Positions 56,179 through 62,267 of a stretch of DNA of 64,000 nt are shown one piece after another. The translations under genes were made by a program, and so were the position numbers. The first letter of the stretch is position 1; each line of letters starts with the position of its first letter. The stretch is from positions 182,501-246,500 of the forward strand of contig JAEMWC010000763.1 of NCBI GenBank assembly GCA_016490735.1. Direction: 5' to 3'. The DNA is from Pachyseris speciosa. Taxonomy: Eukaryota > Cnidaria > Anthozoa > Scleractinia > Pachyseridae. A model generated the notes under the pieces. That model worked only from the letters and a program-made list of their open reading frames with translations, was not told the DNA's origin and searched no databases.

Positions 56179-59172
56179 ATGAGTTGTTAAATGCAAGTGG
56201 GTTTTTTAGAGTCACTCAACATCATCTTGATTATAATGAACGATTTAGATTGCAAGCGCACCAGTATAGCGTAAGTTTAGTAAGTGAAGTTGTAAATCAG
56301 TTGAATTTTGTAGATGTATTGCATGCATTTTCTGAATTAATAAGTGCTCTTGTAGATGATATTCAAGAAGATTTTAATCCTCATGATTTTGTACAATTAG
56401 AATTTATGTCAAATGAGTTAGTGGAAAGTATATCTATACCATTTGTACGTGTGGATCATTTAAATAGTGATAGAGTATTCGCACATGTTGAAAAGGTTTT
56501 AAATTCAAATGCCAGTGTTGACATAAGGCGTAATGTTACAATCACCGTGACGCGTTGTATAAGTCCAACGGGTGGTGGTGTGGCTGGAGGTTGGCAGAAG
56601 GAACAAAAAAGGAGAAGACTTGTTTTTTCTAATACAGTTGATGGGTTTTTTTGCATGTAAGAAAAGTATAATAAGTGTTTATAATATGTTTTATCCGTTA
56701 TGTGGCATTGTTGCATTGTATTTAGCTTATATGTATAATTTAAAAGGTGCTAAATGCGTTCATAATTTACAGCGTTATAGAACCTCTTTGTTAAAGAAAA
56801 TTAGACCTTTTTTGTATAAAGCAGGTTTTGGTTTAGGAAATGAGTTAAGCGTGTTAGACTTGAAACACATTCATAAGGTGAATCCTGAGTTTAATGAGTA
56901 TCATTTAATTATTTATGAAAAAAAAATGGTGATTTAACTCAAGTAGTTTGCACACCATATAAAGATAAGAGTCTTAATTTAGTTTTAGAGAATAATCATT
57001 ATGGTGTGATTACACGGATTCCTACTTTTTTATGTAAGACGAATTTTTGTAGAAAGTGTAATAAGGCTTGCGGTATTGAACACATGTGTGGTCAAATAAG
57101 ATGCAGTCATTGTAAACGATTTTGTGACAGATCAAGTCGAAAATGTGTCACTTCTTGTGTACTATGTAAACGCACGTTTTATTCACGTGATTGTTATGAG
57201 CGTCATTTGAAATACTTCAAAGGTGACACATTGTCAACATGTCAACGTTGGCACGCTTGTGGAGAATGTAAATTAGATGTGCGCACTATTAACGGACAGG
57301 ATTATAGCACGGATGGCTATACACACGTTTGTTATAAATCTAGATGTAGTTTATGTCGTTGTTTAGTTAATTTAACTAATCGCGTTTGTTATATGAAACC
57401 TGCTACACTTTCAGCTGTTTCTAGAAAACGGAGAGATAATAGAATCGGTTCTTTTTTGTTTTTTGATATAGAAGCTTCTGTAGATGAATATGGTAAACAG
57501 ACGCCAAATTATATTGTTTGTCAATGGGGTGATGGTAGTGAAGAGGTATTTTCTGGAGAAAATTGCAGAGATGAGTTTTGTCGCTTTATTTTTAGAGAAG
57601 CAATATGTAGTTTAAAATGTATTTATCTTATAGCACACAATCTTGGGGGGTATGATGTAAATTTTATTTTTCAGTACGTTGCTACTCATGTTCAAAAGAA
57701 GCCAGAAGATATTATTTTGAGAAATGGTCGATTAATTTCCTATTCTTTTGTTTCAGGTAAATTAAAGTTGAGGGATTCTTTACTTTATTTTCAATGTGGA
57801 TTATCTAAACTTCCTGATTTGTTTGGATTGGATGTTAAAGACAAAGGTTATTTCCCTCATAAGTTTAACACAGCTGACAATTGGGATTATGTTGGACCTA
57901 TACCAAGTCGGGAGTATTATTCACCTGAATTACATTTTAGTGAGTGTGAGGTCAAGTTATTTGATGAGTGGTATGAGGAAATGAGTGCTAAATCTGACAG
58001 TGGTGAGTTTGTTTTTTGTCTGCAAGATGAATTGTATTCATATTGTTCAAACGATGTGACTATTCGTCGTGAAGCGTGTTTGAAGTTGTGCGAGTTGTTT
58101 ATGGATAATTGTGATGTCCATCCTTTTGCAGAAGCTTGTACTTTACCATCAACATGCAATCTTGCTTTTCGACGAAAATTTTTGAAAGACAATGTGATTG
58201 GTCTTGTTCCGCCTTTAGGCTATGTTCGGAATGATATTGAAAGCGCTCGAGCGTATCAATATTTAAAATATTTAGATCACAGTCGTTTTAATGGTCAACT
58301 TGAACATGCTGGCAAAAATGGTTTATTGTGTTGGATAAAGATTCGATTGCAAAAAATTCTGCTAAGAAGCAATTTGGAAAGAATGGTGTAAATAATGTGT
58401 GGGGTTTTCTTGGCAAGAATACTTTTGGTGTGTCTGTTCATTTCATTTCAGAAGGAAAAGAACTCCTTGAATTATTGGATGATAGTACACAAGATTGCAC
58501 TCTTTATCATTTAAATAGTGAGTGTTTGCTCGTTCAAAGTAAAACAAAATGCAATACATTCAGGTACAAGGTGACAAAAAAACATCTATTGTTTTGGCTG
58601 CTTCTGTGACAGCTCAAAGCCGTGTGCATTTGGCTAAATCTTTACTCAACATTGGAGAAAATGTTCTTTATTTTGACACTGATAGCATTATATACAAGCA
58701 CGTGATTACTAACCCAATTATTACTCTTGGAACATTTTTAGGAGATTGGGAAGATGAAATGAAAGGAGACAAAGAGGGATATGTGATTAAGACTTTTGTA
58801 TCAGGTGGACCTAAAAATTATGCATTCAAAGCTGTTCACCCTTCTAAACCACCAATTTATGTTGTTAAAGTTCGTGGTTTCACATTAAATTGGAAGGCTT
58901 CTTTAAAATTAGATTTTTCAGTGATGTGTTCGATTATTCATTCTACATTGAAAGCGTATCAAGAAAATAATTGTTGCTGGCCTTTACCTGAAAAAGATCA
59001 GAAAAAAATTGCTATTCCGCAATTCATGATTAAAAAGGACCGAAAGTTTAATTTAGAGGCTAAAGTGTGTTCTAAATTCTATTGTGTTGTTCCTTTTTGT
59101 AAACGCAGACCTGTCAGAAGGTGTTTTGTCAATTCAAGCAGGATTACGTCACTACCTTTTGGGTTTGTATAA
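56106..59172 (+). pseudogene. PolB: protein-primed family B DNA polymerase (Polinton/adintovirus type), broken
   Basis: Pieces in order are an N-terminal region (RGGGDERNITDTPRGRG, then SISIPFVRVDHLNSDRVFAH), a cysteine-rich zinc region (CRKCNKACGIEHMCGQIRC), and the exonuclease motifs FLFFDIEAS, YLIAHNLGGYDVNFIF and YSYCSNDVTIRREA. The C-terminal palm follows with the catalytic VLYFDTDSIIYKH, GPKNYAFK and the end TSLPFGF. Shifts occur at T7 near 56,650, A9 near 56,928, near 58,330 and near 58,570. Between about 58,270 and 58,400 the fingers/palm part with motif A is missing, so this copy is inactive even if the shifts are errors. It identifies block B as a self-replicating type of element. 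Confidence 0.85.
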
Positions 59173-59224: not shown

Positions 59225-59455
59225 ATGGCTTGCTTTGAAGGTATACTGATGTTTTCTCGTGGAATTTTCTCCAGAAAAAACGAAAATAGATACGTTTTAG
59301 AAATGGTTGGTAAAGATGGGTCTTATGTAAAAAAAGAACATTGTAAAGTAGAAGCTGATGACCCGGATGGTATTAAAGCTAATTCAAAAGTGAGATGCGT
59401 CATTGTTTGTTGTCATTCAGAAGCGACCAATGAAGAGTATCGTCGTGGTAAGTGA
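59225..59455 (+). CDS. 76-residue protein, also a possible leader exon
   Basis: From ATG it codes for FEGILMFSRGIFSRKNENRY, then KEHCKVEADDPDGIKANSKV and ends EEYRRGK. Short beta strands with basic residues suggest a small nucleic-acid-binding fold, but no family is recognised. A consensus donor (CGTCGTG/GTAAGT, exon end 59,447) lies three codons before the stop and leaves phase 1, so spliced forms could replace the last residues with any of the downstream tails. It begins 52 bases after the polymerase end. Confidence 0.5.
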   Translation: MACFEGILMFSRGIFSRKNENRYVLEMVGKDGSYVKKEHCKVEADDPDGIKANSKVRCVIVCCHSEATNEEYRRGK

Positions 59456-59475
59456 GTTTGAGATATAGTTAAAGG

Positions 59476-59503
59476 ATGGCTGGAGGAATCACAGTTTCAC
59501 GAA
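59476..59503 (+). other. mini leader exon coding MAGGITVSR
   Basis: ATGGCTGGAGGAATCACAGT continues to TTCACGAA and then a perfect donor, GTAAGT. The exon is 28 bases: nine codons plus one base, phase 1. The peptide MAGGITVSR would be the shared N-terminus of the downstream tails. Its first four residues, followed by I, fit the (M/I/L)xGG-x cleavage pattern of adenovirus-type proteases. The pattern is short, so this is suggestive only. Confidence 0.5.
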
Positions 59504-59544
59504 GTAAGTATTTTTTCTTCTTTTAGGGTGTGAAGAAGTGAAAA

Positions 59545-59823
59545 ATGAGCGTTGCAAAGAAGATACAGTATTTTGAAGATGGTGGGAAAAATAACATGGA
59601 AGATAGCAGTGATGAAGAGTGTGAAAATAATGAAGATTTTTGTGTAAATTGTAGGCTATTAGAAAAACAAATTATTAATTGGCGACGAAAGTATGGTGAG
59701 GTGTTACATACTTTAGGCGAAACAGTTGCTGCAGCTGAAAAATATCAAGCACTTTTTAATACATTGAGTAGTAATATATCTAGTACTGTCGCTTATATTG
59801 GGAAAATCAATACTGTTCCTTAG
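59545..59823 (+). CDS. 92-residue acidic/coiled-coil protein, block B
   Basis: Its own ATG at 59,545 lies 18 bases after a strong acceptor (TTCTTCTTTTAG). The product has an acidic cysteine-containing head (SSDEECENNEDFCVNCRLLE) and a helical part (AAAEKYQALFNTLSSNISS). Its stop TAG overlaps the acceptor AG of the next tail exon. Unlike the others, this frame is not in phase with the leader exons, so it may be translated from its own start. Not recognised. Confidence 0.5.
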   Translation: MSVAKKIQYFEDGGKNNMEDSSDEECENNEDFCVNCRLLEKQIINWRRKYGEVLHTLGETVAAAEKYQALFNTLSSNISSTVAYIGKINTVP

Positions 59824-60008
59824 GAGTATCAAGAAAAGGTCAACCTTATATTGTGAAAAGTTGTAGTCATTGCCATCAACGCACATCAAGATTTGTTTCG
59901 AAAAACGGTTCAAGAGGTGTTAGAAAAAGGGGTAGAAGACAGAAAGGAGGTAAGCTAACAGACGGGATTTTCATCAAATATCGTACTGATGGAACACCTT
60001 ATTTTTGA
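59824..60008 (+). CDS. tail exon 1: basic zinc/arginine-rich peptide without ATG
   Basis: After the acceptor CTGTTCCTTAG the frame opens in the phase required by both leader donors and has no internal ATG. It codes for VSRKGQPYIVKSCSHCHQRT, then SRFVSKNGSRGVRKRGRRQK and a short end to TGA (61 codons). The strong basic charge and CSHC pair suit a DNA-condensing core protein or a nucleic-acid binder. Without splicing it could not start, which is the main argument for the splice model. Confidence 0.5.
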
Positions 60009-60033
60009 TAGAACACTTCTGCTTACATTGCAG

Positions 60034-60197
60034 GTTTTGTTAATTTTAAAGATATTGGAAAGAGCATTGTGAAGGATTTAGCTATTGATGCTGCTAGAGA
60101 TCAATTAAATAAATTTCAATCTGGAAGTGGATGGAAGTTGAAAGATCCAAATAAAAAAATTCCTAGTGTAGGAAGTGTTTTACCTTGGCTTAAATAA
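60034..60197 (+). CDS. tail exon 2: amphipathic peptide without ATG
   Basis: The acceptor GCTTACATTGCAG is close to consensus. The following frame, in leader phase, codes for FVNFKDIGKSIVKDLAIDAA, then RDQLNKFQSGSGWKLKDPNK and ends LPWLK. No ATG is present. The amphipathic helix with a glycine/tryptophan end is reminiscent of small virion peptides that act on membranes, an inference from composition. Confidence 0.5.
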
Positions 60198-60214
60198 AAT
60201 ATCTTTATCTATAG

Positions 60215-60387
60215 GAACGACATATAAACCATTGGAAACGACTATGTTTGGAAACAGTTATTATGATCCAGCTTCTCACTACATACCACAAAAGGGTGGT
60301 TTATATCTTCCTAAAAATATTCAAGAAGGAGATGGTCTAGGAGATATACCCATAATTGGACCTATTCTATCTATTTTTGGATTATAA
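60215..60387 (+). CDS. tail exon 3: TTYKPLETT peptide
   Basis: After the acceptor TATCTATAG the frame in leader phase codes for TTYKPLETTMFGNSYYDPAS, then a GGLYLPKNIQEGDGLGDIPI stretch and ends ILSIFGL. The only ATG lies ten codons in. The LGDIPIIG and GGLYLP parts may be processing or assembly motifs, but nothing is recognised. Confidence 0.45.
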
Positions 60388-60439
60388 GTTACACTGATTA
60401 ATTGAAAGTCGAGTAATATAGTTATTCATTTAATCATAG

Positions 60440-60573
60440 GTTATAGAGGTTTACATCCTGGTTATAAAGTAGCAGATAACTTGAAGAATTCATCTTGGTA
60501 TAAGCGTGAGATGGCTAAAAAAGAAAGAGGAGAAAAAACTATAGTGGAAAAGCTTTTTGGAGGGTGGAAATAG
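60440..60573 (+). CDS. tail exon 4: basic YRGLHPGYK peptide
   Basis: After the acceptor TTTAATCATAG the frame in leader phase codes for YRGLHPGYKVADNLKNSSWY and KREMAKKERGEKTIVEKLFG, ending GWK. Basic and helical, 44 codons. An internal ATG exists but would remove the first half. Confidence 0.45.
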
Positions 60574-60608
60574 TTTCAAAGATGTGTTATTTTATGTTTT
60601 ATGTTAAG

Positions 60609-60647
60609 GTGCAAGATGGGATCACTGGTGGACTTGGGGACAGTAAT
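60609..60647 (+). CDS. tail exon 5: 11-codon tryptophan-rich peptide
   Basis: Following TTATGTTAAG, a weak acceptor, the leader-phase frame reads ARWDHWWTWGQ and stops. Four tryptophans in eleven residues. The acceptor lacks a long pyrimidine tract, so support rests on phase and on similarity to the next tails. Confidence 0.3.
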
Positions 60648-60674
60648 TGAAGATATTTTTTATCACCTTTGTAG

Positions 60675-60709
60675 GTAAAACCGTTCGATGGTGGTGGGAG
60701 CAGATTTGA
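60675..60709 (+). CDS. tail exon 6: 10-codon tryptophan-rich peptide
   Basis: After the acceptor CACCTTTGTAG the leader-phase frame reads KTVRWWWEQI and stops at TGA. Three adjacent tryptophans follow a basic residue, as in tails 5 and 7-9. Confidence 0.35.
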
Positions 60710-60730
60710 GATGCGTTTAATTTTTTTTAG

Positions 60731-60804
60731 GTAGCTGGGAACGATTTAAAAAAGCATGGAATAGTGCTCGAGAAACAACTGCAGATGCAATGTACCCTTA
60801 TTAA
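60731..60804 (+). CDS. tail exon 7: SWERFKKAW peptide
   Basis: After a strong acceptor (TTTTTTTTTAG) the leader-phase frame codes for SWERFKKAWNSARETTADAM, then YPY and stop. The aromatic/basic WERFKKAW pattern parallels FWGKRWKEAK in tails 8 and 9, indicating repeated duplication of a short exon. Confidence 0.45.
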
Positions 60805-60984
60805 TTCAATAAATAATTTAAAAGAAAATCTGTTTCGTATTTATTTAATTTTAGGATGAATGTTGCGTTGTATTATTATTATTCTTATTATTGTTGTTTC
60901 AACGATAATAAGGTTAATAATGACACAAAACAATGTCATTGATGTGGTAAATGGAATTCTTAAGAGGTGTTTTATTTTATTTAG

Positions 60985-61082
60985 GATTTTGGGGTAAACG
61001 TTGGAAAGAAGCAAAAAAGAACACAAAAAATTACTTGAAAGAAATCTTTAGAGTTCCTGGATATGGTCAATGGAAGCCTTAA
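60985..61082 (+). CDS. tail exon 8: FWGKRWKEAKKNTK peptide
   Basis: After the acceptor TTTATTTTATTTAG the leader-phase frame codes for FWGKRWKEAKKNTKNYLKEI, then FRVPGYGQWKP and stop. No ATG. The first 20 bases of the exon and the acceptor tract are nearly identical to tail 9, showing a recent local duplication. Confidence 0.5.
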
Positions 61083-61101
61083 GAGATGCTTGTTTTTTTA
61101 G

Positions 61102-61142
61102 GATTTTGGGGTAAACGCTGGGAAGAGCAAAAAGACAAGTAA
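61102..61142 (+). CDS. tail exon 9: FWGKRWEEQKDK peptide
   Basis: After the acceptor GTTTTTTTAG the exon repeats the first bases of tail 8 (GATTTTGGGGTAAACG) and then codes FWGKRWEEQKDK and stop. A duplicate of tail 8 with a different, shortened end. Confidence 0.5.
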
Positions 61143-61176
61143 AGAAAGACAATCCTAATCACCCCTTTTTTCTCAG

Positions 61177-62267
61177 AGGATATGGATAAAGGCAAGAAGT
61201 TACAACGGAAAAATGAATTAATATTAAAAGTATTTACGGATATAAATTCGCCTGTATCATTCCAGTCTCCAAAAAAAATTTACAAATATTTAAAACAAAA
61301 TGGTTTTCAAATCACATTACAGGACATTAAAAATGTATTAAAAGCTAATCGCGCTTACAACTTAATTAGACAGAAACCAAAACAATTTTTACGTCAAAGA
61401 ATAATATCGGATGGATATGATCAATACTGGCAAGCTGATTTGTTGGAGATGCCTAAGGATAAAAAATCTCTACAACAAAATAAAGGAACGCGTTTTACAT
61501 TGAATTTAATTGATGTATTGAGCCGTTACGCTTGGTCTATTCCTTTAAAAAGTAAACAAGGAGTAGAAGTAGCTCAAGCATTGCAAAAATTATTTGATGA
61601 GATAAAAAGACGCCCTGACAAAGGAGGTGAATTTTATAATAGCCACTGTCAAAAAGTGTATAAACATAATAAGATAAGGTATTATAGCACAAAGTCTGGC
61701 GTAAAAGGCGCACATATTGAAAGATTTCAGCGCAGTTTGCAGCAATATATTTATAGATATATGAAGCATTACAATACTAAAAAATATTTAGATGCAATTA
61801 AAATGTATCTCAAGCACTACAACAACACAATTCATGGCGGAAGTGGTCTCGTGCCTAGTAGTATTACACCTTTTAATGCTTTTAAAGCTGCTCAATTGTT
61901 GTATCCTGTCAATCATTTTAGAGTTAAACAATACAGATTTAGTGTTGGAGAATATGTGCGTATGTCAACGGCAGCAAAGGTGTTTGATAAAGGATATAAC
62001 ACACAATTTACAGAAGAAGTGTTTAAAATAACGAAACGTTATAGAGATCCTTTTAGTTCAGATGTAAATGTTTATTATTTGGAAGATTTATCAGGAGAAG
62101 CCATAGAAGGTAAAGTGTATGAACAAGAATTAATAGCAGCTGAAAAACCAAATAAGAAAATAGAAAAGAAAATTAAAACGTCCAAAGGTAAAACAGTTAA
62201 ATTTTTAGATTTTCCAGAATCGTTGAATGAGTGGTTGAGTAAAAAAGAACTAAAACAATATGAATAG
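61177..62267 (+). CDS. INT: retrovirus-like integrase (Polinton/adintovirus type)
   Basis: A 361-residue protein from ATG 61,182. It has a helical, basic N-terminal domain, then the catalytic core with D86 (YWQADLLEM), D146 (RRPDKGGEFYN) and E180 (GAHIERFQRSLQ). The usual LNLIDVLSRYAWSIPLKSK lies between, and a C-terminal region (FSVGEYVRMSTAAKVFDKGY, EEVFKITKRYRD) follows. The D146-E180 spacing is close to DD35E. The stretch before PDKGGEF looks a few residues shorter than usual. A strong acceptor (TTTTTTCTCAG) lies five bases before the ATG and opens this same frame in leader phase. It overlaps the next gene by eight bases. Confidence 0.85.

What the first reader, a model, noticed from the sequence alone, without database searches (positions are those of the whole stretch)
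59225..61184. Splice-fed array: two phase-1 leader donors and about nine phase-matched acceptors, most tails without ATG
Seen directly: donors at 59,447 (CGTCGTG/GTAAGT) and 59,503 (CACGAA/GTAAGT) both end one base into a codon. Acceptors with mostly good pyrimidine tracts lie before 59,824, 60,034, 60,215, 60,440, 60,675, 60,731, 60,985, 61,102 and 61,177 (a weak one before 60,609), and after each the open frame is the phase-1 frame. Most tails have no ATG, so they could not be made without splicing. The integrase itself is in phase with its acceptor. This looks like one leader joined alternatively to many C-terminal modules, comparable in logic to adenovirus late leaders but with the leader contributing coding sequence. 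I know of no such array described in Polintons.
Basis: partly seen in the sequence, partly recalled or inferred. Interest (0 to 1): 0.85.

Follow-up and report, generated by a model that had tools for sequence, protein, structure and literature searches.

The report
Polinton micro-exon array sharing spliced leader
A virus-like transposon carries a row of nine tiny protein-coding pieces, most with no start signal of their own, each behind a splice-like site in the same register, so they are probably read by splicing a common start piece onto one of them at a time.

Summary
The array is real and more than chance. It lies between the polymerase and integrase genes of a Polinton/Maverick-type element; the same genome holds four other copies of this family, 82-92% identical in integrase. 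Nine short tails each follow an AG and read in the same phase although they lie in all three genomic frames. Against two diverged copies, substitutions fall mainly on third codon positions of that frame: 26 of 41 and 56 of 103. Tails T1-T5 (T4b included) have no in-frame ATG upstream in any copy tested. A 9-codon leader M(A/V)GG(I/V)TVSR with its donor is kept in four of five copies; it was not found in the disrupted fifth.

Best reading: leader 2 is spliced to a basic exon ending RRQKG|G and then to one of several tails; the junction may recreate a QKGG site for the element's adenovirus-type protease. No RNA evidence was available: splicing is inferred; route and protease role are hypotheses.

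The parts
59225..59447 (+). leader 1: ORF MACFEG...EYRRG, ends one base into a codon; unspliced it stops just after the donor
   Evidence: pN/pS 0.25 (L032), 0.49 (L033)
59448..59453 (+). donor 1 GTAAGT; GTAAGT in L035, GTCAGT in L032, GTGAGG in L033 (weakly conserved)
59476..59503 (+). leader 2: nine codons from ATG plus 1 base, MAGGITVSR (L035 same; MVGGITVSR L032; MVGGVTVSR L033; not found in L034)
59504..59509 (+). donor 2 GTAAGT (GTGAGT in L035 and L032, GTAAGT in L033)
59548..59823 (+). ORF MSVAKK... (91 codons, own ATG) inside the intron between donor 2 and T1; weak constraint (pN/pS 0.51 to L032, 0.62 to L033)
59824..59949 (+). E1: possible 126-nt exon, phase 1 at both ends, basic (13 K/R, 0 D/E in 41 complete codons), ends RRQKG|G
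59950..59955 (+). donor 3 GTAAGC, best-scoring donor of the region; same in L035 and L032, GTCAGC in L033
59950..60008 (+). T1 remainder: default C-terminus KLTDGIFIKYRTDGTPYF if donor 3 is not used; constrained
   Evidence: differences by codon position 1,1,5 to L032 and 3,1,7 to L033
60034..60197 (+). tail T2, no ATG; present in window, L035, L033; deleted in L032
60215..60387 (+). tail T3, contains IPQKGG (IPQEGG in L033); window, L035, L032, L033
60440..60573 (+). tail T4, ends KLFGGWK; window, L035, L032; acceptor region and end altered in L033; fragment in L034
60609..60646 (+). tail T4b, G(A/G)RWDHWWTWGQ behind a weak AAG acceptor; window, L033, L034 (stop inside in L032; partly deleted in L035)
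60675..60709 (+). tail T5, GKTVRWWWEQI, identical in window, L035, L032, L033; the 4 differences to L033 are all synonymous
60731..60804 (+). tail T6, GSWERFKKAWNSARETTADAMYPY; AG present in 5 copies, stop inside in L032
60985..61082 (+). tail T7; in the window its head resembles T8 and its end resembles the T7 of L035 and L033 (module exchange)
61102..61142 (+). tail T8; frame broken early in the window copy, longer (29-32 codons) in L035, L032, L033, L034
61182..62267 (+). integrase (rve) with its own ATG; acceptor at 61,177 not conserved, so not counted as part of the array
57006..59172 (+). type-B DNA polymerase gene, defective in the window copy (about 0.95 kb internal deletion and frame breaks)

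Best explanation
This is a cassette for making a family of small, probably virion-associated proteins in a Polinton/Maverick-type element by alternative splicing. A short start exon, leader 2 (MxGGxTVSR plus one base), is spliced to the basic exon E1, and from E1's donor at 59,949, or directly, to one of eight terminal exons (T2, T3, T4, T4b, T5-T8), all in phase 1. If donor 3 is not used, E1 runs on into its own default tail. Shown by comparison: the tails as a set are coding, in one common phase behind conserved AGs, mostly without ATG; leader 2 with its donor is conserved in four of five copies. Inferred: that the spliceosome joins them. Inferred more weakly: that E1 to tail is the main route (about 0.5), and that the junction, QKG|G plus tail, recreates a cleavage site for the element's adenain-type protease so that E1 acts as a removable tag (about 0.3).
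For: Substitutions counted by distance from each AG peak at third codon positions of phase 1: L032 [5,26,10], p 8e-5; L033 [18,56,29], p 9e-6 (8 tails, T7 left out). Pooled pN/pS of tails 0.17 (L032) and 0.24 (L033) (T4b and T7 left out). Tails lie in genomic frames 0,0,1,1,2,2,1,0,0, yet the coding frame always starts two bases after the AG. AG before the homologous tail in 36 of 45 tail-by-copy cells, and the first exon base is G in 36 of 36. The second base changes between A and T in T3 and T5 (and in T7, whose head was exchanged): silent (Gly) only after a donor ending in G (donor 1 or 3), Ser/Arg after donor 2; T1's GA/GG gives Arg both ways after donor 2. T1-T5 with T4b have no upstream in-frame M wherever tested. 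Leader 2 and donor 2 in 4 of 5 copies. QxGG: 8 in nine small proteins of the element against 0.36 by shuffling, 0 of 5000; the element encodes a Peptidase_C5-like protease; adenovirus protease cuts (M/I/L)XGG and also sites with Gln at P4 (PMC4246237, passages). L034's T8 exon itself encodes GQKGG before the same helix, the sequence that an E1-T8 junction would give.
Against: No RNA data at all. L035 alone (10 of 23 differences at third positions) and L034 alone (24 of 61) show no significant excess. Phase 1 is the commonest longest frame behind acceptor-like sites elsewhere too. Leader 2 was not found in L034. Donor 3 is GTCAGC in L033 and may simply be coding sequence of T1, whose continuation is itself constrained. 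Donor 1 is not well kept. T4b's acceptor is AAG. T2 differences to L033 do not favour third positions (6 of 16). T6 is truncated in L032, T8 in the window, T4 altered in L033, so copies are decaying. Only five copies, in one genome, could be compared; T1 and T3 have no relative among 5.8 billion predicted proteins at that tool's sensitivity. Amphipathicity of the tails is at best suggestive.
Confidence: 0.7

Rival explanations
1. Leader 1, not leader 2, is the coding start exon for most tails; the MxGG peptide is incidental. (Overlaps with the best explanation: both leaders could be used.)
For: Donor 1 ends in G and would give Gly at each tail junction; GTAAGT in window and L035.
Against: Donor 1 is GTCAGT in L032; leader 1 has its own stop just after the donor; the MxGG leader and donor 2 are kept in 4 of 5 copies.
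Confidence: 0.15
2. Tails are translated without splicing, by internal or non-AUG initiation, reinitiation or readthrough on a polycistronic RNA.
For: Downstream genes overlap by a few bases with their own ATGs; T6, T7 and T8 have upstream in-frame ATGs in some copies; other Polinton families here may use -1 frameshifting to reach ATG-less ORFs.
Against: Nine tails in three genomic frames separated by stops and non-coding gaps; an AG with a pyrimidine-rich tract before most of them in several copies; constant offset of two bases from AG to coding frame.
Confidence: 0.1
3. Host spliced-leader trans-splicing: the acceptors accept an SL exon that brings its own AUG, and the nearby cis donors are not used.
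For: Rows of acceptors without matching donors are typical of trans-spliced polycistronic genes (recalled); the host is not identified.
Against: Every tail needs one extra base before its first two, so an SL would have to end one base into a codon after an AUG; a cis leader with ATG, matching phase and conserved donor lies just upstream.
Confidence: 0.07
4. Chance: acceptor-like sites are common in AT-rich DNA and the tails are random open frames.
For: Acceptor density is similar on the minus strand at two of three cut-offs; phase 1 is not the longest frame behind four acceptors in the window.
Against: Third-position substitution excess and conserved tails in other copies; shuffles do not reach the open-frame count at the 5.5 cut-off.
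Confidence: 0.02

Closest known systems
Polinton/Maverick elements (adintovirus-like: PolB, integrase, adenain-type protease, packaging ATPase)
   Same: Type-B polymerase, rve integrase, Peptidase_C5-like protease and A32-like ATPase on one strand
   Different: No introns were observed in intact vertebrate Mavericks (PMC8097293, passages); here a multi-acceptor coding array is inferred
Adenovirus leader splicing (major late unit, E4)
   Same: One common 5' leader joined to many alternative 3' splice sites (PMC7851563, passages)
   Different: The tripartite leader lacks AUGs (same passages); here the leader would supply the start codon and the N-terminus
Papillomavirus E1^E4
   Same: A gene without start codon gets it from the region for the first five residues of E1 by splicing (PMC5335905, passages)
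   Different: One tail, not about nine; no internal basic exon
Avian retrovirus env and polyomavirus T antigens (recalled, no call)
   Same: Shared N-terminal coding exon joined to alternative acceptors
   Different: Few products; no array of micro-exons

Membership tests
Polinton/Maverick | Type-B DNA polymerase (DNA_pol_B_2 type) | tested here: met
   PF03175, E 1.1e-16; defective in this copy
Polinton/Maverick | Retroviral-type (rve) integrase | tested here: met
   PF00665 E 1e-5, below the curated cut-off (26.1 of 32.6 bits); 27-37% identity to 19 relatives, all annotated PF00665
Polinton/Maverick | Adenovirus-type cysteine protease and packaging ATPase | tested here: met
   PF00770 E 3.2e-4 but 20.9 bits, just under the cut-off of 21.3; Pox_A32 E 2.6e-7, over its cut-off
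Polinton/Maverick | Double jelly-roll major capsid protein | tested here: inconclusive
   an ORF at the expected place in L059 with no Pfam hit; fold not predicted
Polinton/Maverick | Terminal inverted repeats and target-site duplication | not tested
   the ends of the element were not located
Adenovirus-type late leader | One leader joined to many acceptors in cDNA | not testable with these tools
   no transcript data
Adenovirus-type late leader | Leader non-coding | tested here: not met
   leader 2 carries a conserved ATG and 9 codons ending at the donor

The most novel reading that the evidence does not exclude
A virus-like element uses alternative splicing to put one removable tag on many small cargo peptides: a start exon with an MxGG site, a basic DNA-binding-like exon, and a junction that rebuilds QKGG so that the element's own protease frees each tail (Trp-rich and helical peptides among them) in the particle. 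Tail exons with their acceptors are a shuffling pool that copies lose, alter and recombine.
Probability: 0.3. Interest if true: 0.9.

Novelty: new variant of a known kind. Interest (0 to 1): 0.75.

Why it matters
Intact vertebrate Mavericks are described as intronless. A conserved array of about nine mostly ATG-less micro-exons would show that one lineage took up host splicing to multiply its minor proteins, would explain why such genes escape ORF-based annotation, and would give a natural case of exon shuffling of 10-60 residue modules in a virus-like element.

Tried and rejected
Integrase as a member of the array: rejected, acceptor not conserved. Leader 1 as main leader: kept at low confidence. 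Pfam for T1-T4, T6, T7: no meaningful hit (T4b, T5 and T8 not scanned). Protein database for T3 and T1: nothing. IMG/VR scans with integrase and ATPase: no relative. Phage collection with integrase: none. Searching the own genome with T2, T3, T4 and T8 gave no copy outside this family (3, 4, 6 and 5 matches). Divergent Polinton families of the same genome (10 loci, L036-L045): only ORFs of 60 codons or more were listed, so an array of shorter exons there is not excluded; L036 is masked upstream. Helical moment of tails: only suggestive. Searches in print for splicing in Polintons, Mavericks, adintoviruses or adomaviruses: no listing described such an array; the adintovirus paper that I looked up by a recalled DOI was not held.

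Full report
Setting. The window is a stretch (C763:182,501-246,500) of a 984-Mb assembly. From about 50 kb the base skew changes and a one-strand gene set begins: small ORFs, a type-B DNA polymerase (PF03175, E 1.1e-16), the array in question, an rve integrase, and beyond the window basic core-like ORFs, an ORF in the place of the capsid gene without Pfam hit, a Peptidase_C5-like protease (E 3.2e-4, just under the curated cut-off) and an A32-like ATPase (E 2.6e-7). This is a Polinton/Maverick-type element; its ends were not located. The copy in the window is defective: the polymerase lacks about 0.95 kb that two other copies keep.

Observation. Acceptor-like sites are denser than in shuffles of the stretch itself (14 against 6.3; 1 of 500 shuffles reach it) but not denser than on the minus strand at two of three cut-offs, so density alone proves little. 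Long phase-1 frames behind acceptors are far from chance: 5 against 0.18, 0 of 500 (2 against 0.07, 4 of 500, at the stricter cut-off). Phase 1 is, however, the commonest longest frame behind acceptor-like sites elsewhere in the window too, and for four short tails it is not the longest frame in the window, so the window alone cannot settle them.

Comparison between copies. The genome search returned 113 integrase matches; the window and four other loci (82-92% identity) form one family, and all other rows are at 39% or less. I compared the array in all four: L035 (C703), L032 and L034 (both C284), L033 (C130). L034 is mostly disrupted upstream; it keeps T4b, T6, T8 and part of T4, and leader 2 was not found in it. 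Of 45 tail-by-copy cells, 36 hold the tail behind an AG (window 9, L033 9, L035 8, L032 7, L034 3). Counting differences to the window by distance from the AG (8 tails, T7 left out; 4 of 32 tail-copy pairs did not align), the class that is the third codon position in phase 1 holds 26 of 41 in L032 (p 8e-5), 56 of 103 in L033 (p 9e-6), 10 of 23 in L035 and 24 of 61 in L034 (both not significant). Pooled pN/pS is 0.17 (L032), 0.24 (L033), 0.36 (L035) and 0.55 (L034), T4b and T7 left out; an integrase piece (98-143 aligned bases) gave 0.05-0.13. T5, only 11 residues, is identical in four copies although L033 differs at four bases, all synonymous. The T7 of L035 and L033 resemble each other, and the window's T7 has a T8-like head on a T7-like end. 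So the tails are genuine coding pieces that turn over as modules.

Need for a leader. T1-T5, T4b included, have no in-frame ATG between the preceding stop and the tail in the copies tested; T6 has none in the window and L034 but one in L035, L033 and L032; T7 has one in the window but none in L035 and L033; T8 has one in the window, L035 and L032 but none in L033 and L034. Tails use all three genomic frames, yet the coding frame always begins two bases after the AG. A common phase-1 leader explains this; independent initiation does not.

Which leader. Leader 2 starts with ATG (A at -3 and G at +4, a favourable context by recalled rule) and ends at a GT(A/G)AGT donor in the window, L035, L032 and L033, as MAGGITVSR or a conservative variant. 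Leader 1 is a constrained small ORF whose donor is GTCAGT in L032 and GTGAGG in L033; a 79-nt intron from donor 1 to the acceptor before 59,527 is also possible, but the continuation of the frame is not conserved. Inside T1 a third donor, GAG|GTAAGC after 59,949, makes 59,824-59,949 a 126-nt exon of phase 1 at both ends. Two details favour the order leader 2, E1, tail. First, the tail exon starts with G in 36 of 36 cells, and the next base switches between A and T in T3 and T5 (T7 too, but there the head was exchanged); this is silent only after a donor ending in G (1 or 3), whereas after donor 2 it would swap Ser and Arg. Second, E1 ends RRQKG|G, and L034's T8 exon carries GQKGG in one piece before the same helix. 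Against it: donor 3 is GTCAGC in L033, and the T1 remainder is itself constrained, so GTAAGC could be only coding sequence.

Possible function. QxGG occurs 8 times in nine small proteins of the element that I picked, against 0.36 by shuffling, and also in core-like ORFs of other families here (L040, L041, L042). Adenovirus protease cuts after (M/I/L)XGG and has been seen to cut sites with Gln at P4 (PMC4246237, passages); leader 2 (MxGG) and E1 (QKGG) both fit. E1 is basic (13 K/R, no D/E in 41 residues). I therefore propose, with about 0.3 probability, a removable tag joined by splicing to many cargo tails. The tails resemble membrane-active minor proteins only loosely, and no homologue of T1 or T3 was found.

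Known relatives. The logic resembles adenovirus leaders, but the tripartite leader lacks AUGs (PMC7851563, passages), and papillomavirus E1^E4, where splicing supplies the start codon for one tail (PMC5335905, passages). For intact vertebrate Mavericks absence of introns is stated (PMC8097293, passages). My text searches listed no paper describing such an array, within an open-access library that did not hold the adintovirus paper I looked up.

Noticed in passing
L040 (C2010), L041 (C1232), L042 = L024 (C14), L028 (C520): other Polinton families, same genome: Possible programmed -1 frameshift sites: AAAAAAC between a pX-like ORF and the protease (L040, L041) and between a PLA2-like ORF and an ATG-less integrase (C14, C520); GGGAAACTGATTGG at the start of the PLA2-like ORF in these four places, not listed by the filter and absent from L023, L025, L027, L029. 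Minus-strand loci were read in the wrong orientation, so misses there mean nothing.
   Followed up: partly
window 57006-59172; L073, L074: The window's polymerase gene lacks about 0.95 kb that C703 and C130 keep; all three show frame breaks.
   Followed up: partly
P0018, P0019: Two integrase relatives have an extra N-terminal part in the same ORF; in P0018 it is annotated PF08398 (parvovirus coat N-terminal).
   Followed up: no
window 59448-59526: A possible 79-nt intron from donor 1 to a strong acceptor before 59,527; an acceptor-like site is present there in the window, L035, L032 and L033, but the continuation of the frame is not conserved.
   Followed up: partly
L034 (C284:262200-267300): Integrase 82% to the window but the polymerase match just upstream only 46%, with a degraded array: a mosaic or a nested insertion.
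   Followed up: no
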